A stretch of 64,000 nucleotides of DNA from Mycolicibacterium goodii (lineage in GTDB: Bacteria; Actinomycetota; Actinomycetes; Mycobacteriales; Mycobacteriaceae): the NCBI RefSeq assembly GCF_022370755.2, contig NZ_CP092364.2, positions 5,766,001-5,830,000 of the forward strand, written 5' to 3'. The number at the start of each line of letters is the position of its first letter. Position 1 is the first letter of the stretch. The notes under the pieces were generated by a model. The model saw only the letters and a list, made by a program, of their open reading frames with translations, made no database searches and was not told the DNA's origin. A program made the position numbers and the translations under genes. This document shows positions 11,481 to 47,516 of the stretch, piece by piece.

Positions 11481-11984
11481 TCAGACGTTCAGATACTGCG
11501 CGGTGCTGCCGGCCACCGGCATCTCCGGCAGACCCAGCTTGCGGTGATCCCAGCTGCGGATGCGGCCGGGGACGACGCGCACCGCGATGCGGTTGTTCAT
11601 CATCTGGTCGACGTACGGCCGCATGTCGTCGGTGTAGGGTCCCGTGTACCGCTCCCATACGCTGATGCCCACGCGCAGAATGGTTTCCGGATCATCGGCG
11701 ATCTCGGCCGTGCCGTCGATCGACACGCCGCGCAGGGTGTCGTAGGTGTGCCCGTCCTCGATCAGCACGGTGACCGTCGGATCGCGCCGCAAGTTGACCG
11801 CCTTCTGCGACTTGGCCTTCGTCTCGAACCAGACCTCGCCGTCGAGGACCGCATACCACATCGCCACCAGATGCGGCCTGCCGTTCGGTAGGACGGTGGC
11901 CATGGTCGCCGTGCGGCTCCGCTCGACGAACTCGGCGATCTCCTCATCGGACATGACGATTTTCGCGCGCTCGTTCCTACCCAC
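11481..11984 (-). CDS. PPOX-class F420-dependent oxidoreductase (FDOR-B type)
   Basis: 167 residues with the split beta-barrel pattern of the pyridoxamine-phosphate-oxidase-like superfamily: TATMATVLPNGRPHLVAMWY at about 25-44, EVWFETKAKSQKAVNLRRDP at 50-69, and VSIDGTAEIADDPE. The combination is characteristic of mycobacterial F420 or flavin binding FDOR-B proteins, which reduce diverse small molecules. The cofactor is inferred from family, not proven by a residue. The gene is convergent with the pirin gene. Confidence 0.85.
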   Translation of the reverse strand: MGRNERAKIVMSDEEIAEFVERSRTATMATVLPNGRPHLVAMWYAVLDGEVWFETKAKSQKAVNLRRDPTVTVLIEDGHTYDTLRGVSIDGTAEIADDPETILRVGISVWERYTGPYTDDMRPYVDQMMNNRIAVRVVPGRIRSWDHRKLGLPEMPVAGSTAQYLNV

Positions 11985-12121
11985 GCATCAGCACCTCTCT
12001 GCTCGGTGTGCCCACCATATGCGGCGCCTGCGGCGCCGATCACAGGGTGGGGGCACGACGATCCCTATAATCGGCCACACCACGGCATAGGAGAGACCTT
12101 GGCGACGACGAAAGCCCTTCG

Positions 12122-13066
12122 GTGACGGGTCCACCTCCACCGCCTTGGCCGCCAGGCGGTCAATATCCAGGTGGTCACCAACCGAACTGGTCCGGCCCGG
12201 GCTGGTCGGGCCCCGGATGGTCCGACTCGGGCTGGTCAGGTTACGGCGAGGCGCCGCCCGCACACCAGCCACCCAAGCGGAGCAAGACACCGTGGATCCT
12301 CGCGGTGCTCGCCGGTGTGGTCATCATCGCGCTGGTCGCCGGGACGGTGGTGTGGAGGCTCACCGGGAGTGACGACGAGGACGCCACCGCCGACGGTGCG
12401 ACGACCTCGGCGTCGGCCGCGCCGGAAACCGCTCCCAACGGCACCGCCCCCAGCACCCCGGCGAAACCAGCCTGCGAAGGGAAAATCGCGGCCCGTACGC
12501 CGGACACTCCCCCGGAGTGGATTCCGGTCGCCAGTCCGCGCGGCTTGGACTACGCCGTTCCGCCGGACTGGACGGTCAACAGCTGCACCACTCTGGTGGG
12601 TTGGGAAAAGCCCTGTCCGGACGGGCCGTTCGGCTTCTGCCCCGTCCGCAGCATGAGCGGCTCGGCCATGCTGCCCAACAAACAGTGCCCGGATCACGCA
12701 CGCATGCTCACCGGTGTACCCGGCGCCAGCAAGACCGACGACATCAACGAGGCCCTGCAGCTCGAGACCCAACTCGTCGATGACATCTTCACCTCGAAGA
12801 ACGGTGTGGTGCCTCAGGTTTCCCTTGGGGATCCGCGAGAGTTCACGATCGACGGGGAGCCGGCGGTACAGATCGTCGCGACCGTCACGGGTATCGAGGC
12901 CGACGACTGCACCCCGCCGGAAGCGCTGCACTCCATGGTCGCCACCAAAGTCGACGGACAACCGGGTTCGGTGATGTTCATCGTGTCGATGGAGCAGGGC
13001 TACCCGGGTGCACCCGACCCACGCCTGATCGACGAGATCCTCGCGACGGTCCACCACGCGCACTGA
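12122..13066 (+). CDS. Membrane-anchored protein with Pro/Gly/Trp-rich N-terminus
   Basis: 314 residues from GTG 12122; the ribosome site is weak. Residues 1-50 are a cytosolic Pro/Gly/Trp-rich tail with repeats of the type GPGWSG. One membrane helix (WILAVLAGVVIIALVAGTVV) spans about 58-77. A Thr/Ala/Pro linker is followed by an extracytoplasmic domain of about 200 residues with paired cysteines (C119, C155, C165, C173, C190, C261 approximately) that probably form disulfides. Mycobacteria encode many such proteins of unknown function. It ends 12 bp before the convergent GTPase operon. Confidence 0.7.
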   Translation: MTGPPPPPWPPGGQYPGGHQPNWSGPGWSGPGWSDSGWSGYGEAPPAHQPPKRSKTPWILAVLAGVVIIALVAGTVVWRLTGSDDEDATADGATTSASAAPETAPNGTAPSTPAKPACEGKIAARTPDTPPEWIPVASPRGLDYAVPPDWTVNSCTTLVGWEKPCPDGPFGFCPVRSMSGSAMLPNKQCPDHARMLTGVPGASKTDDINEALQLETQLVDDIFTSKNGVVPQVSLGDPREFTIDGEPAVQIVATVTGIEADDCTPPEALHSMVATKVDGQPGSVMFIVSMEQGYPGAPDPRLIDEILATVHHAH

Positions 13067-13078
13067 CGCCGCAGTGAG

Positions 13079-28764: not shown

Positions 28765-30546
28765 TTAGGTTCGCGGTGGTGTTCGGGTGGGTTCGTATCC
28801 CAGGCTCTTGCGCAGTTGTCTCATCCGGATGTCGATCGATTCTTCGCGCAGCTTGGGGGCTGAGTAGTGCTGCTGGATGTTGTGGTTGGTCGCCGCGATG
28901 GCCAGCGCGAGCAGGATCTTGACCATGGGTTCGCGCCTGGGTCCGGATTTCATCTGGACGAGGTTGGTGATATGTGGCGACTTCAGCAGCGAGAAACGCT
29001 GCTCGGTCGCGCTGCGGGCGGCCTCGAAATACAGCGCGTGTTCCCAGCTGGTGACGACCGGTCCTCCCCATGTTGCCTTTTGAAGTTGCGGCTGGGTGAG
29101 GGTGACGCGCAGTGTGGATTGCCGACAGCAGGTCCGCTCGTCGGCTTGCCAGGTCGGGGTTGCCAGCGGGACGCCGAAGGCGGCGCTTTGCATCGATGCG
29201 GGTTTGAGTGGGTATCGGACGCGCATTTGGACGGCAGGGCAGACCAGCTCTGCTTTGACGTTCATTTCGGGTTCGTCGCCCAGGCGTGGGCGGCCGGGTC
29301 GGCCGTTGACGATCGGTCGTGAGTTGGTGCCCATGAGGAACGGCAGCACTGCGGCGAGCTTGCGGTCGTGTTCGGCCCAGCGGCCGCTCGTGAGCAGCTC
29401 TCGTGTCTTGGGGACCGTGTGACCGCGGAGGAGCTGCTCAACGGCAGGGCAGTAGAACGAGCCCGCGAACTGGATCGGTCCGGGTGGCGCGGTCGCCGAT
29501 GACCCGGGCGGGTTGGTCGAGGCTTCGGTCAGGGTCCAGTGCTTCGGGTATCGCACGACGGGGCTGTAACCGTGCTTGATCAGGAACGGCACCCATTCGC
29601 GTTTGGGGTTGTAGCCCATGTCGACGGTCACGCGGGGGTAGGTATCTTTGCCTGTCGCTCGGGTGTCCAGGCCGTTGGCTTTCATGTGCTCGATACAGGT
29701 GCCAAGAGCTTCGGGGCTGCCCGAGGTGGGAGCGTGAATGTCCATCCCGACGATGACCGGCGCGACTGAGTGCAGTTTGTGTGGTGGTCCGACGCGCACC
29801 GCAACGGTGACACCGACCCCGAATCCCCGTTTGCCGGTGCCTTTGGCGTCTTCACTGAACGGACCTTTGGCGTTGTCGTCGCGGGCGTAGTAGGCCCCGA
29901 AGTAGCAGGCGCCACGTTTGAGGTGGTCTTTGGCTCCGAGCCCGCTGGACGGTCCGGCGAGGTCGAAGATCGTTTCGTCGGCGACGATGTCGCCGCAGGC
30001 TCCTTCGGGTTGAAGGTCGCGGATCGATCCGGCCACGATTTTGTTCATCACGATGCGCAATCGCTCAGCGGCCTGGGCGTAGTCCTGCTGTTGCTGTGGG
30101 GTGCGGCTACTGACGATGGCGCGGTGGGCGGCATTGGAGATCCGTCGGGCGGGCTGGTCGGGTTGTGAGTCCAGGGGGCTCAGTCTGCGGGTCAGCCACC
30201 GCTCGAACCGGTGATACTCGCGGTCCTGATCCTTGCGAGTCCCGAACAGCCGCGAGAGATCCTGGCCCGCCATCCCGACTTCGGCGAGTTGACGCGCGGA
30301 TAGGTCTGCGAGGGTGTTGAGGATCGCTTTGTAGCTCGGCGTCCTGCCCAGGATGATCAGGCTCAGCGCGCAGATCAACACGGCCTCGATCGTGTAGTTG
30401 ACCCCTCGTTGGGTGTGCGGCCTGTCGCTGCCGGGCGCTTGGTAGCTGTCGATGAGTCGGGCGGCCCCGGATCGTTGGATGATGATCTTGGCTTGGCGGA
30501 ACATGTTGTCCGACAGCCGGTATGAGGGCTGGAAGTCGGCGATCAT
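28765..30546 (-). CDS. DDE-type transposase
   Basis: 593 residues from ATG 30546, which overlaps the recombinase-like stop as ATGA; an in-frame extension upstream is antisense noise. A plausible DDE triad is D190 (GDIVADETIFDLA), D309 (RVTVDMGYNPK) and E515 (RSATEQRFSLLK), with the EQRFSLLK helix typical of IS4/IS1182-like enzymes. The region before the first Asp is helical and could bind DNA. A Cys pair at 473-474 and further basic segments suggest a possible metal site. I do not recognise a named IS family. A terminator hairpin follows the stop. Confidence 0.72.
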   Translation of the reverse strand: MIADFQPSYRLSDNMFRQAKIIIQRSGAARLIDSYQAPGSDRPHTQRGVNYTIEAVLICALSLIILGRTPSYKAILNTLADLSARQLAEVGMAGQDLSRLFGTRKDQDREYHRFERWLTRRLSPLDSQPDQPARRISNAAHRAIVSSRTPQQQQDYAQAAERLRIVMNKIVAGSIRDLQPEGACGDIVADETIFDLAGPSSGLGAKDHLKRGACYFGAYYARDDNAKGPFSEDAKGTGKRGFGVGVTVAVRVGPPHKLHSVAPVIVGMDIHAPTSGSPEALGTCIEHMKANGLDTRATGKDTYPRVTVDMGYNPKREWVPFLIKHGYSPVVRYPKHWTLTEASTNPPGSSATAPPGPIQFAGSFYCPAVEQLLRGHTVPKTRELLTSGRWAEHDRKLAAVLPFLMGTNSRPIVNGRPGRPRLGDEPEMNVKAELVCPAVQMRVRYPLKPASMQSAAFGVPLATPTWQADERTCCRQSTLRVTLTQPQLQKATWGGPVVTSWEHALYFEAARSATEQRFSLLKSPHITNLVQMKSGPRREPMVKILLALAIAATNHNIQQHYSAPKLREESIDIRMRQLRKSLGYEPTRTPPRT

Positions 30547-31604
30547 AGGGTGTTCTCCTTGGTCAGGGCGATGGCGTGTTGCAGGGCGAAAGTGGGTAGG
30601 TGGTCTCGTTGGTCGGACAGGATTTGTGCGGTCTGGACGTCGGCGAGCTGAAGCATCAATGCCGCCGGTACCCGGGTGGCCATCTCGATCAGCCACCGAT
30701 TGCGTAGGGCGCTGGCATCGAATCCGCGGTAGCCGCGGTTACGGAGGTGTTCGGCGACTCGGTTGGTGGCGTTGCGTTCGACTTCACCGTTGGCGTTTCG
30801 CAACAAGAACCCTGATTTTCTGGTGCTTGCCAGTGCCAGCAGTCGCTGACTGATCTCGACGTCGGCGACCGGTACCTGCCGGTGTCCTCCGGCGTTGTTC
30901 GGCAGGCTCACGATCGCCACGGGCTCGCCGTCCCAGCTGGCTTGGGAGATCGAGTGCCCGGTGAGGGCTTTGAAGTCGCCGGCCCGCGCCCCGGCGCCCA
31001 GGCAGCAATCCAGGACCACGAACAGCCGCTGTGACAGCGAGGTGGGCAGCGTTGGGGCCAGTGCGTAGAGCTCATCGATCAGCTTCGGGCTTGCTGCCGG
31101 CGTGCGAGGGACGTGTGGTTGGGCCAGCGCCTGCCGTTGCGGGTATTCGCGCGGGTGAACGAGTCGGCCCACGGCATACAGCTGGCCGCGGATCGTGCGC
31201 ATGCTTCGTGCCGGCCGATAGGTCTGTAGGTAGTTCAGGTAGGTGTCGACGTTGGCGCGCCGAAACGACGCCTTGAAGTTGAAGGCGTCCATTCGGTCGG
31301 CATCGATGGCGAGGAACCGGGCCACGGTCCGGACTGCATCCCGATCGGTGTAGCTCGTAGCCTCGTCGGTGAGACACCACAGTCGCTTGCCCGTCTCGAT
31401 CGACGGCGCGACGTACGCCTTCTTCACACCGCGCAATACATCGATGCTGTCGAGACGGGCGTACCGCTGCGGGTCGATAGCCGGGTCGAACGCCGGCAGT
31501 ACCAGGCGGGCACCCTTGGCGGCTGGTTCGACGTGCACAGCTGGTGTGTGCGGATCTGGTTCGTCTGGCGATGCCGCCGCCATGGCAGGATGGCGCGCCA
31601 TCAA
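30543..31604 (-). CDS. Tyrosine-recombinase-like protein, catalytic residues apparently lost
   Basis: 353 residues. The fold pattern is that of phage integrases: an N-terminal helical SAM-like part (about 85-160) and a C-terminal part with a box-I-like segment (LDCCLGAGARAGDFKALTG, R207) and a box-II-like segment (GFDASALRNRWLIEMATR, R301). The histidine expected two residues before the box-II Leu-Arg is Ser, and the expected nucleophile Tyr after LADVQTAQI is Leu. It is therefore probably inactive as a strand-cleaving enzyme and may serve as the DNA-binding partner of the coupled transposase (inference). Weak similarity was judged by eye only. Confidence 0.5.
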   Translation of the reverse strand: MMARHPAMAAASPDEPDPHTPAVHVEPAAKGARLVLPAFDPAIDPQRYARLDSIDVLRGVKKAYVAPSIETGKRLWCLTDEATSYTDRDAVRTVARFLAIDADRMDAFNFKASFRRANVDTYLNYLQTYRPARSMRTIRGQLYAVGRLVHPREYPQRQALAQPHVPRTPAASPKLIDELYALAPTLPTSLSQRLFVVLDCCLGAGARAGDFKALTGHSISQASWDGEPVAIVSLPNNAGGHRQVPVADVEISQRLLALASTRKSGFLLRNANGEVERNATNRVAEHLRNRGYRGFDASALRNRWLIEMATRVPAALMLQLADVQTAQILSDQRDHLPTFALQHAIALTKENTL

Positions 31605-33081: not shown

Positions 33082-33672
33082 CTAGTCCGGTGTGTAGCCG
33101 AGCGTTCCGGCGCAGGTGGAGCAGAGGGTTTTGACGCGGATGCGGTGGCTGCGGTGCAGTATGCCGGGCGCTCCGCAGCGTTCGCAGATGAGGGCGGAGG
33201 CGCGTTCTGCGTCGTCGGTGACGGCGTCCATGGCATCGAGCAACTCGGGATCGGGATCGTCGCCGCTTCCCTGACAGTAGTAACGCAGGGTGCCGAACTT
33301 CTCCTTGATCTGATGCACTCGATAGTCGGGATCAAGCCGGGCCAGCTCGGCGTCGGTGGCGATCACGAGGGGATACCAGCCGGCGCCGACGCTTAACCAG
33401 CGCCCCCACCCGTCCGGGATGCGCCGCAGGATGGTCTCGATCGCAACTTTGTGTTCTCCGGCGTCGGGTGGAATGCGCAGCGCATTGCGATGCTCGCGTG
33501 GGTCGATATCCATAGCCGTGAGGCGGCCGGTCACGTCGACGTCCTCGGGTGTGGCGGTGCCGTTGTTGAGCGCCTCGCTCATGGCGGTGATGTCGGATTC
33601 GACGGCTGCCAAGCGGATCTTCTCCGCCGCGGTCAGATCCGGGATGCCGTCGCTGTCGCCGCCGGTGGTCAC
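33082..33672 (-). CDS. Hypothetical zinc-ribbon protein
   Basis: 196 residues. The middle contains GWGRWLSVGAGWYPLVIATD and VHQIKEKFGTLRYYCQGSGD, a block seen in many small phage- and plasmid-associated proteins. The C-terminus has two Cys pairs (CERCGAPG and CSTCAG) that should bind zinc. The ATG overlaps the stop of the AAA ATPase gene (ATGA), so the two are translated together. The function is unknown. Confidence 0.6.
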   Translation of the reverse strand: MTTGGDSDGIPDLTAAEKIRLAAVESDITAMSEALNNGTATPEDVDVTGRLTAMDIDPREHRNALRIPPDAGEHKVAIETILRRIPDGWGRWLSVGAGWYPLVIATDAELARLDPDYRVHQIKEKFGTLRYYCQGSGDDPDPELLDAMDAVTDDAERASALICERCGAPGILHRSHRIRVKTLCSTCAGTLGYTPD

Positions 33673-34796
33673 AGGTACATCCCCTCGGTGGGGGTGGCGC
33701 GGTAGCGACCGCTGCCCACCTCGGCCAGCAGCGCCGCAGTGGTGAGGAGACCGGTGTCGTCGGCGGCCAGGACGGCGCGGCGCACGATCTCGCGCAGGTC
33801 GCTGCCGCTGGTGTGCTCCGGGAGAGCGGCGGCCACCGCGTCGGTGTCGACGCGTGCCGCGCCGGGCAGGCCCGTCAGGAGGGCGGCCAGGATGCGGGCG
33901 GCATCAGCGCGGGTGGGGTAGCCGATGTCGACGATGGCGTCGAAGCGGCCAGTGCGGATCGCGGCCCTGTCCAAGGTGTCCGGATCGTTGGTCGAGGCCA
34001 AGGTGAGGATGCGGGCGTCGGCGGCGATGTCCATGGCCTGCAACAGTTCCGAGAGCCCGCCACCGCCGGTGCTGCGGTCGCGGCACCACAGGTCGACGTC
34101 TTCGAGGATCAGCAGGATCGGCCCGCCAAGACGCTGCGCTTCCTGGACGACGGCACTCAGGAGGTGTTCACCGGCTCTGGCATCGACGTAGATCACGGTG
34201 AACTCGCCGACGACGTCGGCGGCGACTACCGCTGACACGGCGGATTTGCCGGTGCCCGGTGGCCCGCATAGCAACACGCCGCGGCGGGCGCCCAGGCCGT
34301 GGGTGTTGAGCAGGTCGTGGCGGTCGCGTACGGCGGTCAGGCCGAGGTCGATCTCGCGCCACACCTGCTCATCGACGATGACGGTGTCGCGGGTCGCGGT
34401 GGTGGGCAGGGCAATAACCGTCAGGTGCAGGCCGTGGCTGAAGCTGGCGCGCAAGGCTCGTCCGCGGTAGGGGTTGAGCTCGTTGGCGCGCTCAGCCAAC
34501 CGATCCAGCACCGCACGAACGGCGTCCTGGTGATCAGGGGTGACGAACGCGCTGACCTCCGGGAAGCGCATCGACGTCTGTCGTGTCTCGATACCGATCA
34601 CACACCCGGTGTCGGGGAGCAGGGCGCCGGCGGGGAAGTGCGCGCGCAGGCATTGCGGGTGGCGGTAGGTACGGTCGCCGATCTCGGTCTGGGTCCACTT
34701 CGGGGGCTGCGCCCGCTCGCCGGGTCCGATCTGGACCACCTCGGAGTGCGCGGTGATCCATTCGGCCAGCGCGACCGCGGTGGTCAGCCGCGACAC
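33669..34796 (-). CDS. AAA family ATPase
   Basis: 375 residues. A classic AAA module lies in the second half: Walker A GPPGTGKS 178-185, Walker B LILEDVD to 235, sensor-1 region LTLASTNDPDTLDRAAIRTG, and an arginine-finger-like RTGRFD. The N-terminal about 165 residues are of unknown fold and could select the substrate. The organisation resembles stand-alone remodelling ATPases rather than a transposition or clamp-loader protein. It starts inside the 3' end of the preceding gene (13-bp overlap) and is coupled to the zinc-ribbon gene downstream. Confidence 0.8.
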   Translation of the reverse strand: MSRLTTAVALAEWITAHSEVVQIGPGERAQPPKWTQTEIGDRTYRHPQCLRAHFPAGALLPDTGCVIGIETRQTSMRFPEVSAFVTPDHQDAVRAVLDRLAERANELNPYRGRALRASFSHGLHLTVIALPTTATRDTVIVDEQVWREIDLGLTAVRDRHDLLNTHGLGARRGVLLCGPPGTGKSAVSAVVAADVVGEFTVIYVDARAGEHLLSAVVQEAQRLGGPILLILEDVDLWCRDRSTGGGGLSELLQAMDIAADARILTLASTNDPDTLDRAAIRTGRFDAIVDIGYPTRADAARILAALLTGLPGAARVDTDAVAAALPEHTSGSDLREIVRRAVLAADDTGLLTTAALLAEVGSGRYRATPTEGMYL

Positions 34797-36211: not shown

Positions 36212-37258
36212 GTGACGAGCGACCCAACGGAGCGCCTTCTGCGGATGGCGGTCTTGATGTGGAGTAACGCCGACCGAGCCGCTCGGGCGTGGCGGATGGG
36301 CGAGTGGGCGCTGCTGCACCAGGTCCGCGCCGACGGCAGCAGCAAACCCCGGGATCCGTCCCGTTTTGTTCCGGACAGGGGAAGCAGCCTCGACCTCGAT
36401 GACAGACACATCTCACCCGAGCTTGGCGCGAACTTCGTCAGCTCGACGGCGCGGTTCCCTGTGATGAACGCGGCCGAGTGTCTTGTTGGGGCATCCCAGG
36501 CGTTCGGGGCATCGTTGGAGCAGAAGCGCACGAGCACACTGTCGACCGGGATCCTGTGCCGCAGCGCCATCGAGAGCGCTGCCAAGACTATCTGGCTTCT
36601 CGCCGACCCCAACCGCGCCGTCCGGCGCGCTCGCTCACTGGGCTACACCGAGCGCGAGATCGGCTACCAGAAGAAGTACATCGCCGTCGAGACGCGCTTT
36701 CTCGAGGTGCGCACTGACGAGCGCCGCGACGCCGCGCGCCAGAGTTTCGCCGAGACGGAGCAGCAGTTTCGTGAGCGGTTGAACTTCCTGACGTCGCTAC
36801 CGAAGGCAGCCCGACAGCGGCCGCCCTCAGACTATGAGTTCTTTGTCCGTTGGGCCGGGGAGTGGATCGACCAGAATCCGCCCCCGCACATCACTGATGC
36901 CGACGGATTGCCGCACGGGATGTCGATCGGGGCCGAGCGCTTCTACACCGTCGGTTCGAGCTTCGTACACGGATACAAATGGATGACCGCCTATCTTGGC
37001 ACCGAAGAGAACGTCCTCACCCAACTCGCTGAGAGTCTTGCCGCGGCGGTCATCATGACCGAGTGCGCGGTGGCGCTATACGAGGCCCAGGCGACGCACC
37101 CCGCCCGAGCCCGAGTGCGCCGCAAGAACTACCCCGACCATCTGGACCCGACGGTGTTGCTGTGGGCAGACCGATACGGCCTACCTGCGCCAGCAATAGG
37201 GGAACCCATTCCGATGATCACTCGACAGCAGGCGGAGGACGGTCATGAGACAGTCTGA
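36212..37258 (+). CDS. Hypothetical helical protein coupled to ApeA (HEPN-like by appearance)
   Basis: 348 residues from GTG 36212; the frame is open to 36110 but the ribosome site is poor throughout, and ATG 36245 is an alternative. The protein is almost wholly helical, with ILCRSAIESAAKTIWLLADP and a later RFYTVGSSFVHGYKWMTAYL, reminiscent of HEPN-type or DUF5677-like proteins in which a Ser-x-x-His-Gly helix occurs. The last 14 bp overlap the ApeA-like start, so the pair is co-translated. Membership in a defence module is inference. Confidence 0.55.
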   Translation: MTSDPTERLLRMAVLMWSNADRAARAWRMGEWALLHQVRADGSSKPRDPSRFVPDRGSSLDLDDRHISPELGANFVSSTARFPVMNAAECLVGASQAFGASLEQKRTSTLSTGILCRSAIESAAKTIWLLADPNRAVRRARSLGYTEREIGYQKKYIAVETRFLEVRTDERRDAARQSFAETEQQFRERLNFLTSLPKAARQRPPSDYEFFVRWAGEWIDQNPPPHITDADGLPHGMSIGAERFYTVGSSFVHGYKWMTAYLGTEENVLTQLAESLAAAVIMTECAVALYEAQATHPARARVRRKNYPDHLDPTVLLWADRYGLPAPAIGEPIPMITRQQAEDGHETV

Positions 37259-38699
37259 GCCGCAACGGATCACGGGTTGGTTCTACCTCCCCGAGGATCC
37301 CAGCAACCGTGTGCCGGGAGTGCTGACCTGGGACCCGGGCGACGGTGCAACCCTGGAGCTGATCGGCGGTTTCTCTCCGGGACCCGAGTTCCGCCGGAAT
37401 CCGACCGGCGGACGGGTCGCTACTAACTTCGTGGGCGACGTACGGCCGGGGACCGTCTACGGTGAAACAGTTGCTGGAAAACAGATTTCTGTCTGGGACG
37501 CTCAGCGGGGCAGTCACACCGCAGGCTTTGACGGCGCAGTGCGTGAAGAGTTCTGGCATTCCTCGTGGATGTGCGTCGGGGCGCACATCATCAGCCCGCA
37601 GGAACCGGCATTGGTCAAAGCCACCATCACCATCGATGAGCTTTACTACCTCACCGACGACGGTAGGTTCTGCGCACCGCAGTGGGCCACAATCGAAGGA
37701 CTGGAACTTGAAAATCCGGGTAAAAAGCAGCCCGATGGCACACTGTTGACCCCGTACATTCTCCCTGTCGTCGGCGGTTACCGAGCTGAGTACGCGCGAG
37801 CTGACACCTCAGACGCGTCGTATGCGATCGCAACCACCGCGACGCGACCATGGATAAGTCCAGCGACAGAGGCCATGCCGGGCCTGAAGCTCGACATGAT
37901 GACGACCAACCTCCGCAGCGGCCCACAGGTTCTTCTACAGGTCAGTGCTCACGCCTGTATTGAGCTGCCGGACAAAGTACCTGGGTCGGTGGCCGACTTC
38001 GCGGATCGGAAGCCAGCCGTCGACGACCTCGTTCAACTGGCTACATTCGAGTCCTGCGGTACCTCAAAGATGTCTCTTCAGACCGCCAGCGATGACAGTA
38101 TCTCCCTGCTGATGCATACCGGCCGAACTGCTCGTCCCGATGATCCGCACAAGCCGACGGCCATCGTGTTCACCCTCGCCGATGTCACACTCGAGGCATA
38201 CCTCCAGACGCGGCAACGCTTCACCGACAGTCTCCAGTCAAGCTATGCATGGAGCGTCGTCGTGGGCCTCTGCGGACACTCATCACGCATCGTCGAGGAA
38301 TACGTGAGCCAGGCGTTGGCCGCAGCCGAGGGCTTCCACCGCTGGTGCCTCGGCGGCGGAAGCAACGTCACGTTGAACACCCGACTGCAGGCACTGCACG
38401 ACAGGCTCGCCCCTGAGGTTCAGGCGGCACTCGGCCTCGACGTCGCTCATTGGGCAAGCTGGGCGGTGTGGGCACGCAACCATGTTGCACATGGCGGAAC
38501 CCATGCGTGGCGCCCGCACAGTGACAGCTTTCAACTTCATCCGGTCGCCGAGTCGGTTCACCTCGTGACCTATCTGGTTGCCCTGGAGGAACTCGGTGTT
38601 CCCGAGGCCAAGGTGCTCGACGCTCTGCTCAACCACCCACGACTGAGCGCACTGGTGGAGCGATGCTCGCAGGTCAACGATCTCGGCGACGCCACTTGA
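37245..38699 (+). CDS. ApeA-type anti-phage HEPN protein
   Basis: 484 residues. The N-terminus ITGWFYLPEDPSNRVPGVLT followed by DGATLELIGGF is the characteristic start of the ApeA N-terminal domain (ApeA_NTD1). The C-terminal helical domain contains WARNHVAH at 409-416, an R-N-x3-H (Rx4H) HEPN RNase motif with R411 and H416. ApeA is a single-gene abortive-infection system whose HEPN domain is essential for defence (published). The gene is intact and overlaps the upstream gene by 14 bp. The family call is from memory; the HEPN residues are visible in the sequence. Confidence 0.82.
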   Translation: MRQSEPQRITGWFYLPEDPSNRVPGVLTWDPGDGATLELIGGFSPGPEFRRNPTGGRVATNFVGDVRPGTVYGETVAGKQISVWDAQRGSHTAGFDGAVREEFWHSSWMCVGAHIISPQEPALVKATITIDELYYLTDDGRFCAPQWATIEGLELENPGKKQPDGTLLTPYILPVVGGYRAEYARADTSDASYAIATTATRPWISPATEAMPGLKLDMMTTNLRSGPQVLLQVSAHACIELPDKVPGSVADFADRKPAVDDLVQLATFESCGTSKMSLQTASDDSISLLMHTGRTARPDDPHKPTAIVFTLADVTLEAYLQTRQRFTDSLQSSYAWSVVVGLCGHSSRIVEEYVSQALAAAEGFHRWCLGGGSNVTLNTRLQALHDRLAPEVQAALGLDVAHWASWAVWARNHVAHGGTHAWRPHSDSFQLHPVAESVHLVTYLVALEELGVPEAKVLDALLNHPRLSALVERCSQVNDLGDAT

Positions 38700-39486: not shown

Positions 39487-41112
39487 ATGGCTCGCAAACC
39501 TGCCGTCGCCGCAGCGACCACGCTGTACAGACTCGTCGGACTGACCAGCCCTCGCTCGGCGATCCGCAATAAGTACCTGGAGTCTCCCGCCTTCACATTC
39601 AGCACCCCCTCAGTGGGAAGCCGCGAATCAGCGCTTGTGGTTGGCCACATCATCACTGAGCGCGCGAAGTGGACAGGCACCGTAAGCGCACTCATTGAGG
39701 ATCCCGTCGATGCCCACAACACCACCGCGGCAGCCGTATTGCTGGTACCGGGCGACGAGGACGTCACTTGGGCTCTGTCCTACGGAATGGGCTTCCTACT
39801 GCTAGACCAGTCTTACGTCGACCCAGGCTTCGGGCAACGCCTCGCCGTCCGCGTCGCCGATGCTGATCAGCTCAACTCGCTCACGCGGAAGACCATGGAC
39901 GACCGCGCCAAGGTCGACCGCTCATCCATTCCCTCCGGTGACCATCTTCGAGGCTTCGGGATCGGCGGATTCGGAGAATTGGTGACCCGACTCGTAGCCA
40001 CCGCAACACTTCCAGGCCTCAGCACCGACAAGCCCATCAAGCTCCGCGGCGCCGATGGGCTGAACATCCCGCTCGGTAAGAAACCTGGAACGTTGCTCGC
40101 CGACCTGGACGCCATCACCAAGGCGCTCCTGCTGCCCGTCGTCAAGGACCTAGAGGTCCTCGAACAGCTCATCGCACTAAAGAAGGGCAGCGAAGACGCC
40201 ACCAAACTCGACGCCAAGCTAGTCGACGCCCTCCAGCGAGCCTCTGCCACACCGATCGGGGCAGCATGGCCCCACGAGAGTGTGAACGAGAACGGCACAC
40301 CGGCCGCGTTCGCGGTCAAGAAACGCGGCCGACCTGAAATCCGGCCCGGCACTCCCACCGTCGAGGACCTCTTTTCCGCCCTCGATACCGAGAATATTCT
40401 CGAATCACTCGACCGCGTCAAGATCCAGCTCTATAGCGATCCAGACGGCGAAAGCCCGATCAGTCCAGATATCCCGCTACGCAAGTGGATCGCATTCGAA
40501 GCAGACCTCGACGGCCACAAACACTTCCTGCACGACGGGCTCTGGTACCGAATCGACAACACCTATGCTGCCCAGCTCAAGCAGCGCGTTCAGACCATCT
40601 TCAACCGCCCGTGCGACCTGCAACTTCCGGCCTGGCCCGCAACGGCCGACGGTAAGCTCATCCCCGAGAAGGACTACAACGAACTCGCCGCCCGCGCATG
40701 TGGTGGTGTACTTCTCGACCGAAAGCTCGTTCATACCAACCAGAATCCGCGCGGCTTCGAGACCTGCGACATCCTTACTCCTGACGGTACTCTCGTCCAC
40801 GTCAAGAACCTTGATGCCTCTGCCCCCGCGAGTCACCTCTTCGCCCAGGGCGCGAATTCAAGCCACACGCTAAGTTTCGACGAGGAAGCGCGCGATAAGT
40901 TTCGTGCCCGCGTGATCGAAGCTGGCGGGGACCCTAAGTTGGTGCAGGACAAGCCCCCAGCGATCGTGTTCGGCATCGCACGCAACTCCGACAAGGCCTT
41001 CACCGCCGAATCCCTGTACAGCTTCAGCCAAGTGACGCTTGTGCGCACGTACCTAGATTTGGAAGCACGTGGCATTCCCGTCAATGTGGTGCCCATAGAT
41101 CGCGCAGTTTGA
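39487..41112 (+). CDS. DUF6119 / TIGR04141-family sporadic protein
   Basis: 541 residues. The central block GFGIGGFGELVTRLVATATL followed by KPIKLRGADGLNIPLGKKPG and TLLADLDAI is the hallmark of the sporadically distributed TIGR04141 family (DUF6119). The C-terminal region ETCDILTPDGTLVHVKNLDA followed by SHLFAQGANSS has a D-x(n)-HVK arrangement like a PD-(D/E)xK nuclease core, which would fit a defence role but is inference. The gene stands alone and appears full length. GC content and codon use are slightly lower than in the core regions. Confidence 0.75.
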   Translation: MARKPAVAAATTLYRLVGLTSPRSAIRNKYLESPAFTFSTPSVGSRESALVVGHIITERAKWTGTVSALIEDPVDAHNTTAAAVLLVPGDEDVTWALSYGMGFLLLDQSYVDPGFGQRLAVRVADADQLNSLTRKTMDDRAKVDRSSIPSGDHLRGFGIGGFGELVTRLVATATLPGLSTDKPIKLRGADGLNIPLGKKPGTLLADLDAITKALLLPVVKDLEVLEQLIALKKGSEDATKLDAKLVDALQRASATPIGAAWPHESVNENGTPAAFAVKKRGRPEIRPGTPTVEDLFSALDTENILESLDRVKIQLYSDPDGESPISPDIPLRKWIAFEADLDGHKHFLHDGLWYRIDNTYAAQLKQRVQTIFNRPCDLQLPAWPATADGKLIPEKDYNELAARACGGVLLDRKLVHTNQNPRGFETCDILTPDGTLVHVKNLDASAPASHLFAQGANSSHTLSFDEEARDKFRARVIEAGGDPKLVQDKPPAIVFGIARNSDKAFTAESLYSFSQVTLVRTYLDLEARGIPVNVVPIDRAV

Positions 41113-41355: not shown

Positions 41356-42138
41356 CTACAAGATGTGGTCAGTCCCCCCGTTGAGGATGTCCACCATGTC
41401 GATGACAAAGGGCGATGGCCCGGTAGAGATCCAACGACCGTATGGAGTGAAATAGCCTGGGCCGACTATAAGACGGACATCGTGTTGGGCTCTCGTAATC
41501 GCCACGTAGAGAGCTCGCCGAGGCTCTTCCATCTCTTTGGGGGTCGGGTCTCTCCAGCCACTCGCAACCTTCACCTGCCTTGGTACAACGCCGTTCACAA
41601 GTCCGGGCAGCACAACGGTATGAAATTCTCGGCCCTTGGCGCTGTGATAAGTCGTGACCACGACCTTTCCAGCGACCAATGGGAACCGCGCGATGTCGAT
41701 CAGAGACAAGGCCTCTTCCTCGACGACTCTCCTCAACCTATCGGTCACGCTGGCATTGTCTTCGTCAGGATGTCGCTCGGCGACGGCGTCCAGTTCAAGC
41801 TCGGTCGTGAGACGGTCGAGCCATTGGGCCGCGGACCCTTCCGGGTCGTAGGCGACCCCAGGTGGGTCGACAGCTACTTGCACAGCACGCACCAGTGCCA
41901 AACGTGTTGGAGGCAATGACACTTCCGAGTCGCGTCGAAGCCGCTCAAGCTTGCGCACAAGCTCCATGGTGCTAGGAACATGGGTCGATCGGGTGAGATC
42001 AGACGTGACTGTCGCGGATTCGCGAATTTGCATATTCGCGACAGTCCGGCCAGCACACTGCTGCACGAAACTAGAGACCGACCCAGCTGGTAGCCGGGAG
42101 TCGCGTTCGTGCAGGAAGGGGATCGCGCTGGCGCCTAG
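41356..42138 (-). pseudogene. GajB-like UvrD helicase, 3' fragment (split by IS1182 element)
   Basis: The C-terminal part of a UvrD/PcrA-type helicase: motif V VVTTYHSAKGREFHTVVLPG and motif VI ALYVAITRAQHDVRLIVGPG are intact. An internal GTG at 42066 makes an apparent 236-residue frame, but the fragment joins the 5' part at 43909 once the 1,770-bp element and one CTAG copy are removed, restoring a single 625-codon gene that begins at 45007. Loss of the joined frame should abolish the helicase. With the OLD-type nuclease gene upstream it forms a Gabija-like pair. Confidence 0.9.
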
Positions 42139-43908
42139 GAGTCTGCTGAATTAATCCGGCGTGGTGGCGGGGTTTGTGGCTGGGTTCTCGAGATGATTAA
42201 TGGATGCAGGGGCATTCTGATGATCAGCGTGAGCTGTTGGATGCGGAGTCGGTTGCCGGGCATCTGCTGAAGTCCGACAGCATGTTTGCATTTCTGGCCG
42301 AACACCGCCACGAGTTGTTTCCCGAGGCGATGTTCGCTGATCTTTTCCCGTCGCGGCGGGGGCGTCCGAGCGTGCCGGCCGAGGTGATGGCTTCGGTGAT
42401 CACCCTGCAGGCCCTGCACGGGCTCTCTGATAGCGAGACCGTGGACGCGGTCACCTTCGATCTGCGCTGGAAAGTCGCGTGCGGGTTGGCGGTGACCGCG
42501 CCGGCGTTTCACTCGACCACGCTGACCTACTGGCGGCGCCGGCTGGCGGCCTCGCAGGCGCCGGACCGGATCTTTGAGGCGGTCAAGGCCGTCGTGGCGC
42601 AGACCGGTGTGTTGGCCAAAAAGACGCGGCGAGCGTTGGACTCCACCGTGCTCGATGATGCGGTGGCCACCCAGGACACCGTAACCCAGCTGATCGCTGC
42701 GATCCGCCGGGTCGGGCGCGAAGTCCCGGGGGCCGGCGAGGTGATCACCACTTACTGCACCGCCCACGATTACAGCGATCCGGGTAAACCGGCGATCGCC
42801 TGGAACGACAGAACCGCCCGCGACCAGCTTGTCGACGCCTTGGTCGGCGATGCGCACCGGCTGCTAAGGCATCTGCCCGACCAGGAACTGGGCCCGCGGG
42901 CCGCTGAGGCGGTGTCGTTGTTGGCGCTGGTCGCCGGCCAGGACGTCGAACCGGTCGAGGGTTCTGATGGCACCGACGGGCAGTGGCGCATCGCCCAGAA
43001 GGTGGCCGGTGATCGGGTGATCTCTACCGTGGATCCCGAAGCCCGCCATGCCCATAAGACGGTGCATCGCCGCCAGGACGGATACAAGGCCCACATCGCC
43101 GTCGAACCCGACACCGGAATCATCACCGACTGCGCGCTGACCAAGGCAAGCGGACAAGACAATCACGAAGCCGTCATCGGACTGGCGCTGCTGGCACACG
43201 AGACGACGGCGGTGCGGGTGCTCGGCGACTCGGCCTACGGCACCGGTCAGGCACGGGCGACGCTGGCCGAGCTCAAGCATGTCGCCGTGATCAAACCGCT
43301 CCCGCTGAGAACCCCGGTCCCGGGTGGGTTCACCAGCGATGACTTCACCATCGATTTCGCGGCCCGTACCGTGACGTGTCCGGCCGAGCACACCATCCCC
43401 ATCGGACCTAGCGGTGGAGCTGCATTCGAAAAGCATTGCCGGTCATGCGCTTTGAGGCACCTGTGCACCACCGCAGTGCGTGGGCGAAAGCTCACCATCA
43501 GCGAACACGAACCGCACCTACGTGCCGCCCGCGCCCTCGCGCGCACACCCGAATGGCAGGCTGAGTACCGCCAACACCGCCCCATGGTGGAACGCTCGAT
43601 CGCCTGGTTGACCCGCGGCAACCGCAAAGTCCGCTACCGCGGCGTCAGCAAGAACAACCACTGGCTGCACCACCGCGCCGCCGCATTGAACCTGCGCCGC
43701 CTGATCAGCATGGGCCTGACCCACACCGGCACCACCTGGGCCATCGCCTAAGCCCAGACATCCCGGCGGCCTTGCGGCGCGAACATCGGATTGCCACGCC
43801 CCAAACGGCGGGGCAATCCCAAATCTGTCGGCCTGCCTGTGACTTCACACACGCGCCGACGAGCGCTTGAGACGCCCCGCCCCATCAACCCACTAATTCA
43901 GCAGGCTC
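42139..43908 (+). mobile_element. IS1182-family insertion sequence
   Basis: 1,770 bp with imperfect terminal inverted repeats: left GAGTCTGCTGAATTAATCC (42139-42157), right end GAGCCTGCTGAATTAGTGG in reverse orientation (43890-43908). The target duplication CTAG is at 42135-42138 and 43909-43912. A palindromic 4-bp target such as CTAG is typical of IS1182 relatives. The intact target duplication indicates that the element has stayed in place since insertion. Confidence 0.95.
42204..43751 (+). CDS. IS1182 family transposase
   Basis: 515 residues from ATG 42204. The family N-terminal domain (LFADLFPSRRGRPSVPAEVM style) and a DDE core are present: D146 (RALDSTVLDD), D342 (RVLGDSAYGTG) and E463 (RPMVERSIAWLTRG). 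The Cys cluster CRSCALRHLC at about 412-421 is the usual IS1182 zinc motif between the second Asp and the Glu. The gene fills the element with 65 bp on the left and 157 bp on the right. It appears intact and probably active. Confidence 0.95.
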   Translation: MQGHSDDQRELLDAESVAGHLLKSDSMFAFLAEHRHELFPEAMFADLFPSRRGRPSVPAEVMASVITLQALHGLSDSETVDAVTFDLRWKVACGLAVTAPAFHSTTLTYWRRRLAASQAPDRIFEAVKAVVAQTGVLAKKTRRALDSTVLDDAVATQDTVTQLIAAIRRVGREVPGAGEVITTYCTAHDYSDPGKPAIAWNDRTARDQLVDALVGDAHRLLRHLPDQELGPRAAEAVSLLALVAGQDVEPVEGSDGTDGQWRIAQKVAGDRVISTVDPEARHAHKTVHRRQDGYKAHIAVEPDTGIITDCALTKASGQDNHEAVIGLALLAHETTAVRVLGDSAYGTGQARATLAELKHVAVIKPLPLRTPVPGGFTSDDFTIDFAARTVTCPAEHTIPIGPSGGAAFEKHCRSCALRHLCTTAVRGRKLTISEHEPHLRAARALARTPEWQAEYRQHRPMVERSIAWLTRGNRKVRYRGVSKNNHWLHHRAAALNLRRLISMGLTHTGTTWAIA

Positions 43909-45007
43909 CTAGAGCGGCAAGCAAGTGATCGAGCACCGGGCCACGTGCCGGATAGAGCACAGCTATTTGTTCGTATCTAACCCCGGCATCAACTGCTTCG
44001 GCGACGATTTCCACAGCCGCGTTGGCATGCTCGTCGAGTCCCCCTTCCGCATTAATGATCTCGATGTTGCCTGCGGGAGCGCCCTCCCGGGCCTTCCTCC
44101 CGCGCGCGATGCCTAACGCAGCCTCAGCAGCCTGGATGATGTCCTGGCCGGATCTATAGTTCGTGGTGAGCGGGAAGTCGGTGAAATCGACACGCTGCCG
44201 TAGCTCATTTAGGTACCGGGGGTCTGCGCCAGAGAACCCGAACACTGATTGGTCTCCGTCACCGACAGCAAGAACTGATATACCGGCTGCATCGTGCAGC
44301 GTCACTACCAACTTGTGAAGTACGCCGCCCATGTCCTGATACTCATCCACGAGCAGATACGGAAATTTCGAGCTGAGCAGGTCACGGACCGACGGAAAAG
44401 AATTCACTATCCCCACCGCTCCGACGACCATTGCCTCGAAGTCTGTTTTGCCACGACCAAACAGCTCCGCTTCGTAGAGATGCGCCGCGGCTACCTCTCG
44501 CTGGTCGAATCCCGCGAGGTCCTCATCGCACGCAATCGCACGGCGAATTTTGTTGCTAGCGGCGGTCCGGAATTTCGCATCAAGGTCAGCAATGCCCAGC
44601 TCATCGAAGCACCACTGTAGAAGCTTTTGCTGTCCACTCTCGCCCAATACTGAAGCGGTCGATGGCGCAGGGTAACCGGTTAGAGCAGCGTAGGCGCCCA
44701 GTATCTCGTTTCTGCAGAATGCGTGCACAGTCGAACAAGAAAATCGACGGCTCGTATGGGCTCCCAAAGTGGAAACACGTCGACCAATTTCATCTGCTGC
44801 GGCGTTCGTGTACGTGAGACATGCAACACCCCGGAAGGGTGACAGTTCAGCCTCCAGTAAGTACGCCGCACGGGCGACGAGCGTCCGCGTCTTGCCACTG
44901 CCCGGTCCAGCACTCAGTACGGCGTCACCCTCGTGGAGGACGGCGGCAAGTTGTTCAGCGTTGAGATCGGCTAGTTCGGCCGCAAGGCGATCGCTTACCA
45001 ACATCAT
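43909..45007 (-). pseudogene. GajB-like UvrD helicase, 5' fragment
   Basis: The N-terminal 366 codons of a UvrD/PcrA-type helicase: Walker A SAGPGSGKT at about 32-40, motif Ia CLTYTNAAADEIG, Walker B LLVDEYQDM, motif III VGDGDQSVFGFSGADP, motif IV TTNYRSGQD. Translation runs into the element and ends within it at 43898 after GAC. Starts at ATG 45007 (ATG 45004 is equally possible), 3 bp after the gajA-like stop, with GGAG upstream. Continues at 42138 after the insertion. Confidence 0.9.
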
Positions 45008-45010
45008 CCG

Positions 45011-46978
45011 CTACTCCGACGGCTCCCTAAGTGATTGTGGCAGAAGAGGTTCCTTGCGCACTTGTTCTGAAATCGCATTGAGGGCTTTGAAGATATAGCC
45101 GGAGTAGAAGCTGTCATATACGTCGCTCGGCAGATCGGCTAACCGGTTACCGGTGACCTGCTCCGCAATACGCGCCCGCAGATCGACTTTGGCGATATGC
45201 GCAGCAACACGCTGCGCGAATCTGCCCTTGCCGATGACCGTGATCCGGGAGAGCATCGCGTCTCGTATCGCGACGTCTATAGGTGTCTCCAATTGGTTAT
45301 CAACCCCAGCATTAACGTCGTCGCGCGCCGGCTGCGACGGTGACAGCTCAGCAAATGCTGCCTTGATCTCGTCTCCAAAGAGTGTGCAAAGGTCAGCTTC
45401 CAGCGTCTGCCATCCTACGAATATCCCTGCTTTACCGAGCTCGTCAACGATCGGCTCGCGCCTTGGCACAAGATCCTCATCATCTAATTCGGGCAGTTCT
45501 TTGATGCGCTTCAGCAGTTCTTCCCTCTGCGTCTTGGGCAAGAGCCGCGCCCCGCGCTTGATCCCCGCATGGGTTCGTCGACGCTTGTCTGGATCCGTGT
45601 CACCGTCGGTGACAATCGCGTGTGGTGTCTTGATTCCTTGCTTCCCGAGGAGGGCACGATATGGTCGGAAATCGGTGCCGTGCGCGCTCGCAATCACCAC
45701 GCCGTGGCTGTCGAGATCAAAGCCGGCTGCAGATGCCAGCGCAGGGAGCACATATAGTTCCGCCAAACCTTCAACGACAATCACGCCCGCCGCGAAGAGG
45801 ATTTCAGCGCGACTGACGTCGATGTACCTCTCGAGATCTTCTGCCTGATTCTCCGAGATGGGGAGTCGAGAGGTCGTAGCACCAACGGTGGCGGCGCCTT
45901 TGCTATCGCGACGGAGCACGACGAACGATCCAACCGGCGTCACAGCCGCTACATGTGGACTATGGGTTGTCAGAACTAGCGACGACTCGCTGCGAAGCAG
46001 GTAATGGAACAGTCGCCTCTGTAAGCCAACATGCAGATGAGCTTCGGGTTCTTCAACAGCGACGAGGGTCGCGACGAATTGGTCTGCGGCCCGTTGACGA
46101 GTTAGAACCTCCAGAAGGAGACCGAGGTAGATGACGTTCGCGCTGCCAAGACTGCTGTCTGCCACGCTGCGTGATCGTTCCTGATCGACGAATAGCCGAA
46201 CGGCCCTCAGCAGTTCGTCAGCTCGAGTTGATGCGAAACCCAGCGTGGGCTCGACTGAGAACCGAGGTCCGAGCATGTCGCCGAGTCGATTCGACAGGTG
46301 GGTCTGCAGGGCACCAACATTCTCGTCCTTCGTAAGCTCATCGACCGCTACCGCTATGGCGTCTGCCGTAGCAGCCAGTTTGTCCGGCTTTATGGGCAGA
46401 GACTCGAGAAGGTCTCTGAGCGGATTGCGGCGCCACGATTGCAGGTCGCTCTCTGCGTCTCTTAGAGCTGGTAAGAGCCTCATCGCGATGTCACGTCGGA
46501 TTGAACGAACGTCCTCATCCTCCGCTAGACCCCCGAAGACGATGAAGTCGTAGTCCTGCGAAGTAAGTGGCTCTGGCGGCTCACCGCCTCCCTGCTCTTC
46601 GGAAGCGCCTCCCGCGTCAGGCCCTCTTCTAGGAAAAAATCGATAGGTGAGTCTCGCCGTATACGGCGTGCTCGCTACGACACAGGCCCCGAGGACGGCC
46701 TTGGCGTCGTCGTCATCGTCGAATCCCTGAAGTTCGATCACGACCTTGACTTCCGCCCCGCCAGCCAACCCCCTCGGATGGCCCTCCCATATGTCCTCAG
46801 CACGAAGCATCCGGCGCGTATCCGGAATCGAAGGATCCAGAACCAGCCGTAGGGCTTCGAGGAGATTCGACTTCCCCACCCCGTTCTCACCGACTATCAC
46901 TGCGGGCGAGGGGAATTGATCCAGTTGCAGATGCTCGAAGTTACGGAAATTCTGGATCTCTACGCGCGAGATATGCAA
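45011..46978 (-). CDS. OLD-family ATP-dependent endonuclease (GajA-like)
   Basis: 655 residues. ABC-type ATPase: Walker A GENGVGKS 30-37, signature-like LGSANVIYLG at about 278-287, Walker B VAVEEPEAHLH to 316, H-loop H339. The C-terminal TOPRIM nuclease has VVEGLAELYV with E403 and E407, the strand VIASAHGTDF, and the acidic IVTDGDTDPD with D458 and D460. OLD nuclease plus an adjacent UvrD helicase is the architecture of the Gabija anti-phage system (GajA plus GajB). This gene is intact, but its partner is broken. It ends 3 bp before the helicase start. Confidence 0.88.
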   Translation of the reverse strand: MHISRVEIQNFRNFEHLQLDQFPSPAVIVGENGVGKSNLLEALRLVLDPSIPDTRRMLRAEDIWEGHPRGLAGGAEVKVVIELQGFDDDDDAKAVLGACVVASTPYTARLTYRFFPRRGPDAGGASEEQGGGEPPEPLTSQDYDFIVFGGLAEDEDVRSIRRDIAMRLLPALRDAESDLQSWRRNPLRDLLESLPIKPDKLAATADAIAVAVDELTKDENVGALQTHLSNRLGDMLGPRFSVEPTLGFASTRADELLRAVRLFVDQERSRSVADSSLGSANVIYLGLLLEVLTRQRAADQFVATLVAVEEPEAHLHVGLQRRLFHYLLRSESSLVLTTHSPHVAAVTPVGSFVVLRRDSKGAATVGATTSRLPISENQAEDLERYIDVSRAEILFAAGVIVVEGLAELYVLPALASAAGFDLDSHGVVIASAHGTDFRPYRALLGKQGIKTPHAIVTDGDTDPDKRRRTHAGIKRGARLLPKTQREELLKRIKELPELDDEDLVPRREPIVDELGKAGIFVGWQTLEADLCTLFGDEIKAAFAELSPSQPARDDVNAGVDNQLETPIDVAIRDAMLSRITVIGKGRFAQRVAAHIAKVDLRARIAEQVTGNRLADLPSDVYDSFYSGYIFKALNAISEQVRKEPLLPQSLREPSE

Positions 46979-47403: not shown

Positions 47404-47433
47404 ATGCGTAGCAGTTCGTAGAACCGCTCGCTG

Positions 47434-47516
47434 TGGGCGAAGGGGGACTTGAACCCCCACGTCCCGAAGGACACTGGCACCTGAAGCCAGCGCGTCTGCC
47501 ATTCCGCCACTCGCCC
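47434..47516 (-). tRNA. tRNA-Leu (anticodon CAG)
   Basis: 83 nt without encoded CCA. The acceptor stem GGGCGAG pairs with TTCGCCC, the D-arm contains GGCGGAATGGCAGACGC, the anticodon stem-loop is CTGGC-TTCAGGT-GCCAG with anticodon CAG, the variable arm is long (TCCTTCGGGACG), and the T-arm is GGGGGTTCAAGTCCCCC. The long variable arm is characteristic of tRNA-Leu. It lies between the accessory island and fhaA, as leuT does relative to fhaA in M. tuberculosis. Confidence 0.97.

What the first reader, a model, noticed from the sequence alone, without database searches (positions are those of the whole stretch)
41356..46978. Gabija-like defence operon whose helicase is cut by a cleanly inserted IS1182 element
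GajA-like OLD nuclease (ATPase with GENGVGKS, TOPRIM E403/E407/D458/D460) is followed 3 bp later by a UvrD-type helicase split at 42138/43909. The 1,770-bp element has matching ends and a CTAG duplication. Deleting it plus one CTAG leaves 1,878 bp, exactly 626 codons, in frame with all helicase motifs. The insertion therefore disrupts an otherwise intact gene and is probably recent. The lone nuclease may be silent or may act with another helicase.
Basis: partly seen in the sequence, partly recalled or inferred. Interest (0 to 1): 0.75.

Follow-up and report, generated by a model that had tools for sequence, protein, structure and literature searches.

The report
Phage-defence operon broken by jumping gene
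A mycobacterium carries an ordinary two-gene phage-defence system (Gabija) whose second gene was recently cut in two by a jumping DNA element, so this defence is probably switched off in this strain while uninterrupted versions exist elsewhere.

Summary
GajA (45011-46978, minus strand) is a class 2 OLD nuclease: best PADLOC model GajA PDLC00070, 605 bits over 1-640. Three bases on lies a GajB-type UvrD helicase; its two pieces, searched apart, best match one model, PDLC00117, at 5-367 and 374-597. Between them is a 1,770-bp IS1182-family element flanked by CTAG; a second copy in the genome is identical over 1,780 bp. Evidence for recent insertion into a working gene: M. komossense has an uninterrupted gajB with one CTAG at that codon; a database GajB (P0190) matches the pieces at 201/201 and 260/260 residues and runs through the site; the IS copies are identical. 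In 72 of 79 named relatives both gajB halves share one open frame; of 74 with both halves found, none has an insertion there. Most likely consequence: Gabija defence is lost, since published work finds both genes essential. A new member of a known kind plus an ordinary IS disruption. One testable twist: the truncated helicase spans the region homologous to the GajA-binding part.

The parts
45011..46978 (-). gajA: class 2 OLD nuclease (ABC-type ATPase + Toprim), 655 aa, TTG start; open from end to end
   Evidence: PADLOC GajA PDLC00070 605 bits, 1-640; Pfam AAA_15, AAA_21, OLD-like_TOPRIM; catalytic residues invariant in a 25-sequence alignment; PDB GajA matches
43898..45007 (-). gajB 5' piece (UvrD helicase N-terminal half), 369 aa, closes at a stop codon inside the IS end
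   Evidence: PF00580 137 bits; PDLC00117 at profile 5-367
41356..42138 (-). gajB 3' piece (UvrD C-terminal half), 260 codons open + stop
   Evidence: PF13361/PF13538; PDLC00117 at profile 374-597
42139..43908 (+). IS1182-family insertion sequence, 1,770 bp, transposase antisense to gajB
   Evidence: identical second copy at G000:C1:3539128-3540905
42204..43751 (+). IS1182 transposase, 515 aa, open frame
   Evidence: NF033551 383 bits, cut-off 270; two genomic copies, no stop inside either
42139..42153 (+). left terminal inverted repeat of the IS
   Evidence: 14 of 15 match to the right end, read
43894..43908 (-). right terminal inverted repeat of the IS
42135..42138 (.). CTAG target-site copy 1
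   Evidence: one CTAG at the equivalent codon of uninterrupted M. komossense gajB (36-base stretch printed)
43909..43912 (.). CTAG target-site copy 2
47433..47516 (-). tRNA-Leu(CAG) bordering the variable region that holds gajAB
   Evidence: ARAGORN, Rfam tRNA; core genes close to it in 2 of 8 relatives' stretches

Best explanation
A normal Gabija anti-phage operon (gajA-gajB) of the actinobacterial type, in a variable region beside tRNA-Leu of a mycobacterial chromosome, was recently inactivated by an IS1182-family element that inserted at a CTAG within gajB, between helicase motifs IV and V (motif names recalled). Shown: gene identities, the split, the CTAG on both sides, uninterrupted counterparts, the identical second IS copy. 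Inferred: gajA upstream is still transcribed and translated; gajB now ends in the IS after 369 residues and loses its C-terminal half; the GajAB helicase-nuclease machine is not made in full form, so Gabija immunity is lost in this strain while GajA persists as a lone, nucleotide-inhibited nuclease.
For: GajA and GajB models and PDB relatives. Pieces map contiguously on intact gajB: L023 11973-13076 and 13068-13838. M. komossense has one CTAG at the same codon. P0190 is identical to the pieces over 201/201 and 260/260 residues and uninterrupted. Two IS copies identical over 1,780 bp. In 72 of 79 named loci both halves lie in one open frame, 591-837 codons (the 79 are those kept of 149 relatives, and some are near-duplicates); no insertion between the halves in 74 of 74 where both were found. 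Both pieces are open and conserved (pN 0.096 and 0.152 against pS about 0.61 versus M. komossense). Literature: both genes are needed for defence (PMC10822852 passages; PMC12407980, a preprint, passages; PMC10681800 passages).
Against: No phenotype or expression data. No intact allele with genomic context from a named strain of the same species: P0190 is a 464-aa record from an undisclosed 4,617-bp contig; it lacks the first ~165 residues and its first four residues do not match, so its own completeness is unknown. The C-terminal half of this lineage's gajB has more unique substitutions than relatives in 6 of 6 comparisons (from 41 v 6 to 34 v 17, chi-square 5.7-26), which could mean weak constraint before the insertion; P0190 shares them, so the IS did not cause them. 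Two named relatives (L057, L059) have gajB frames broken without an insertion, so gajB loss is not peculiar to IS events.
Confidence: 0.88

Rival explanations
1. The truncation is not a plain null: GajA and the 369-residue N-terminal GajB fragment still assemble into a complex that lacks a complete helicase motor, giving a deregulated or partly active nuclease.
For: In B. cereus Gabija the GajB N-terminal region (residues 1-223) binds GajA by itself and the C-terminal region does not (PMC10822852 passages). Profile positions 197-303 of this GajB family match B. cereus GajB about 138-245, so a fragment of about 366 GajB residues covers that region. GajB ATPase-site mutants lose defence, yet the complex cuts linear DNA more (same paper, same calls).
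Against: A protein cut within an SF1 helicase core may not fold or persist; the ATPase site between the two motor domains would be incomplete; no structure model was obtained (job not finished).
Confidence: 0.12
2. GajA works with another UvrD-family helicase of the cell, so defence persists.
For: The genome encodes other helicase stretches matching the GajB model (C1:427046, 201 bits; C1:3944665, 164 bits; others lower).
Against: They score well below the 5' piece of the split gene (381 bits) and sit in frames of 726-1,170 residues, as expected of housekeeping helicases (my inference; the model also rings in 12 of 14 control genomes). Deletion of gajB abolished defence in the published test (PMC10822852); that the test host has its own UvrD-family helicases is recalled.
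Confidence: 0.03
3. The insertion is an assembly or culture artefact.
For: P0190 shows the uninterrupted sequence, identical in protein, from a record whose origin is not disclosed, so it could even be the same strain or a mixed population.
Against: Single-contig 6.74-Mb genome at 99.99% completeness; precise CTAG on both sides and a second copy on a different CTAG; P0001, a GajA with 4 of 655 residues different, one of them only the reading of the start codon, indicates another closely related strain in the database.
Confidence: 0.03
4. gajB was already a decaying pseudogene and the IS merely landed in it.
For: Excess unique substitutions in the C-terminal half of this lineage, 6 of 6 comparisons.
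Against: Both pieces open end to end; 98 of 105 C-half positions invariant in six relatives are kept (N half 180 of 183); pN/pS about 0.25 in the C half.
Confidence: 0.06

Closest known systems
Gabija (GajA + GajB), B. cereus VD045 type
   Same: OLD nuclease with ABC ATPase and Toprim, Toprim active-site residues kept; adjacent UvrD-like helicase; order gajA-gajB
   Different: distant in sequence (no pairwise identity computed); GajA here 655 aa and intact GajB relatives about 623 aa against mostly 575-598 and 493-499 in the solved chains; the helicase is split by an IS
Gabija of Mycolicibacterium komossense DSM 44078 (L023)
   Same: GajA 83% identical, gajB contiguous in one frame, one CTAG at the same codon
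   Different: no insertion; a different genomic setting: no tRNA in the 22-kb locus, and of the window's ORFs outside gajAB only two at 54.3-57.4 kb have partial matches there, at 39-42% identity
IS1182 family, mycobacterial group (annotated relative ISMgi3 in the M. gilvum Spyr1 plasmid, 74% DNA identity over 91%)
   Same: transposase model NF033551; CTAG at 12 of 12 left ends and 9 of 9 resolved right ends (11 relatives' loci plus the window's own copy)
   Different: nearest other full-length copies in the 297 genus genomes searched are 82% identical
Class 1 OLD nucleases (single-gene)
   Same: ATPase-Toprim architecture; this gajA now stands without an intact partner
   Different: by sequence a GajA; its loneliness is secondary (class scheme: PMC10568477, passages)

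Membership tests
Gabija / class 2 OLD (GajA) | OLD ATPase + Toprim matching GajA rather than RecF or retron OLD | tested here: met
   PDLC00070 605 bits over 1-640; RecF 42.6 bits over residues 3-46 against cut-off 172, retron Eco8 51.1 against 250
Gabija / class 2 OLD (GajA) | Toprim catalytic residues (E379, G409, D432, D434 in B. cereus numbering) | tested here: met
   E403, G434, D458, D460 invariant and aligned to GajA; roles from PMC10781630 passages
[quoted passage not shown]
   3 bp downstream; both pieces best match PDLC00117
Gabija | intact two-gene operon | tested here: not met
   gajB split by a 1,770-bp element; a disrupted member, not a working system by sequence
Gabija | phage restriction needing both genes | not testable with these tools
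   no phenotype data
IS1182 family | family-specific DDE transposase | tested here: met
   NF033551 383 bits over 5-502, cut-off 270
IS1182 family | terminal inverted repeats and target-site duplication | tested here: met
   14 of 15 bp repeat; CTAG on both sides, one in the uninterrupted relative
Class 1 (single-gene) OLD | OLD gene alone by ancestry | tested here: not met
   gajB pieces adjacent; relatives carry gajB in one frame (72 of 79)

The most novel reading that the evidence does not exclude
The cut falls beyond the GajA-binding part of GajB, so the strain may make a natural GajA + motor-less GajB complex: a standing nuclease assembly whose helicase control has been removed, with altered phage range, plasmid exclusion or self-toxicity, reversible at low frequency by precise loss of the element. 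CTAG-targeting IS elements would then act as slow on/off switches of defence genes.
Probability: 0.08. Interest if true: 0.5.

Novelty: new member of a known kind. Interest (0 to 1): 0.2.

Why it matters
It is a clean, probably recent natural knock-out of a Gabija helicase beside an open nuclease gene, with an uninterrupted GajB record identical over the shared residues. That makes a matched pair for asking what GajA does without GajB in its own host, and it documents defence loss by insertion in mycobacteria, where Gabija of this model is uncommon (7 of 297 genomes of the genus at E <= 1e-60, own genome included).

Tried and rejected
RecF or other repair-protein identity of the nuclease: rejected. 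CTAG as part of the element rather than target: 12 of 12 left and 9 of 9 resolved right ends carry CTAG (three right ends lay outside the alignment; the set includes the window's own copy, and L104 and L105 share flanks, so they are not independent); that alone fits both readings. The one CTAG in the uninterrupted M. komossense gene favours target duplication. Link to the neighbouring TIGR04141/DUF6119 and ApeA-like genes: neither matched any of the loci held then (L001-L101, flanks up to 10 kb, E <= 1e-15), and a full-text search for DUF6119 gave one paper, on wheat (listing). Integration repeats of the tRNA: a direct-repeat search of 22-48 kb showed none involving the tRNA. Plasmids: 438 records match the nuclease, best 61% in Streptomyces; no mycobacterial plasmid among the 12 listed. 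Structure prediction of M. komossense GajB was accepted but not finished; the GajA job was never accepted. Promoter scan near chance, 2 found against 1.4 expected; 9 terminator-like sites against 3.8, the strongest (14 pairs) between tRNA-Leu and gajA. A search for CTAG and IS1182 returned two papers; passages of one (PMC8027508) give CTAG as target of ISPsy32 and GGCC for its IS1182-family element ISPsy36, so it does not document CTAG for this family; the other (PMC8370563) was irrelevant. A further search gave nothing useful. A search for IS inactivation of Gabija listed 8 papers and one for Gabija with Mycobacterium listed 15 of 31; none was opened for this point, so I make no claim that such disruption is unreported.

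Full report
What is there. On the minus strand, gajA (45011-46978) is followed after 3 bp by a UvrD-family helicase gene that starts at 45007 and is cut by an insertion sequence. GajA has OLD-type ATPase and Toprim domains in Pfam, matches PADLOC GajA model PDLC00070 at 605 bits over residues 1-640, and its closest solved relatives by sequence are class 2 OLD Toprim domains and B. cereus GajA. RecF and retron Eco8 models match only the N-terminal 44-46 residues, far below their cut-offs.

The helicase. I kept the two pieces apart. Both best match one GajB model, PDLC00117, at profile positions 5-367 and 374-597, and both map end to end on the uninterrupted gajB of Mycolicibacterium komossense, 11973-13076 and 13068-13838 of L023, at 82.6% and 73.2% identity. 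The M. komossense protein matches the same model over 6-620 at 515 bits. The 5' piece carries the nucleotide-binding motifs of the first half, the 3' piece those of the second; the split lies between motifs IV and V (motif naming from recall).

The element. 42139-43908, 1,770 bp, with an IS1182 transposase (NF033551, 383 bits, cut-off 270) on the plus strand, inverted repeats agreeing at 14 of 15 inner bases, and CTAG on both sides. A second copy at 3.54 Mb is identical over 1,780 bp including the CTAGs; it sits on the TAG stop codon of a 539-codon frame, an apparently harmless place. Among 12 loci of the genus (11 relatives of the element and the window's own), 12 of 12 left ends and 9 of 9 resolved right ends carry CTAG; two of them, L104 and L105, share flanks and are not independent. 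CTAG is scarce in this window, 27 against about 201 expected. The nearest other full-length copies in 297 genus genomes are 82% identical, so the two copies probably arose by recent movement within this lineage.

The uninterrupted state. M. komossense has one CTAG at the equivalent codon (36 bases printed). A database protein, P0190 (464 aa, 8 member sequences, one 4,617-bp contig, source not shown), is identical to the window's pieces over 201 of 201 and 260 of 260 residues and runs straight through the insertion point. It lacks the first ~165 residues and its first four do not match; a contig edge, a gene-calling effect or a separate lesion cannot be told apart. P0001, a GajA with 4 of 655 residues different, one of them the reading of the start codon, suggests another closely related strain. 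Of 79 named loci (those kept of 149 relatives), 72 have both halves in one open frame of 591-837 codons; 4 had no detectable 3' half (one near a contig end, three in open frames of 609-626 codons), 2 have the halves in different frames (L057, L059), 1 ends at the contig edge. None of the 74 with both halves has extra DNA between them. In the genus, 7 of 297 genomes hold this GajA model at E <= 1e-60, the own genome included. Of the other 6, 5 have a frame of 592-665 codons next to gajA that matches the 5' piece, and the sixth (L171) only a weak match about 2 kb away; the 3' piece matched in none of the six at E <= 1e-3, so their C-terminal halves were not verified.

How recent, and was the gene working? 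Both pieces are open; against M. komossense pN/pS is about 0.16 for gajA and the 5' piece and 0.25 for the 3' piece at similar pS. The 3' half shows more unique substitutions in this lineage than in relatives in 6 of 6 relative-rate comparisons (41 v 6, 33 v 12, 35 v 16, 37 v 12, 37 v 19, 34 v 17). For the 5' half 1 of 6 is notable in the same direction (28 v 13) and for gajA 1 of 6 in the opposite direction (15 v 30); the others are not. P0190 shares the C-half residues, so the changes precede the insertion. Caution: apart from M. komossense the GajB relatives were picked by likeness to the 5' piece, the comparisons are not independent, and one search scored only 8,000 candidates. Relaxed or adaptive change of the C-terminal half, or recombination, remains open.

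Function. Work on B. cereus and P. aeruginosa Gabija reports that both genes are needed for defence (PMC10822852, PMC12407980, PMC10681800; passages), while GajA alone cuts DNA in vitro (PMC10781630 and PMC10681800, passages). The plain expectation is a silent system with a lone nuclease. The alternative is that the truncated GajB still binds GajA: in B. cereus the first 223 residues suffice (PMC10822852), and profile position 303 here already corresponds to about residue 245 there, so the cut near residue 366 spares that region. GajB ATPase-site mutation raised cutting of linear DNA in vitro and abolished defence in that paper. This is inference; no structure model could be obtained. The genome's other matches to the GajB model score 201 bits or less against 381 for the 5' piece.

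Surroundings. In 2 of 8 relatives' stretches (L159, L160) the window's core genes up to 19.8 kb end within 4-5 kb of the same tRNA-Leu, whereas here about 27.6 kb separate them; the other six showed only scattered matches. So gajAB lies in a region that varies between relatives, of lower G+C at 44-47 kb (0.58-0.59). It also holds an ApeA-like HEPN gene, a TIGR04141/DUF6119 gene and an IetA-like AAA gene. The genome is a mycobacterium by its relatives (inference); its species was not disclosed.

Verdict. It is an ordinary Gabija operon with an ordinary IS knock-out; interest is modest.

Noticed in passing
19785-47432: Region of about 27.6 kb beside tRNA-Leu(CAG); 2 of 8 relatives' stretches have only 4-5 kb there, with core genes in the same order.
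   Followed up: partly
37245-38699: ApeA-like HEPN protein (Pfam ApeA_NTD1 and HEPN_Apea; weak PADLOC candidate PDC-S58, 27 bits), a further possible defence gene in the same region.
   Followed up: no
39487-41112: TIGR04141/DUF6119 protein (309 and 344 bits), convergent with gajB; function unknown, no relevant paper in one search.
   Followed up: partly
33669-34796: AAA ATPase weakly like IetA of a known defence system (61 bits); the ORFs at 28765-31604 have 39-40% relatives within 20 kb of the tRNA in another genome (L163).
   Followed up: no
L173 position 2129 (G000:C1:3539128): The second IS copy lies on the TAG stop codon of a 539-codon frame, so CTAG targeting can land harmlessly on stop codons.
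   Followed up: yes
41356-42138: C-terminal half of this lineage's gajB has more unique substitutions than relatives, older than the insertion.
   Followed up: partly
L057 11736-13555; L059 5826-7588: The two gajB halves lie in different frames without an inserted element; sequencing error not excluded.
   Followed up: no
L104 and L105 element ends: IS1182 relatives in two different genomes of the genus share flanking bases, perhaps the same insertion site or an old shared insertion.
   Followed up: no
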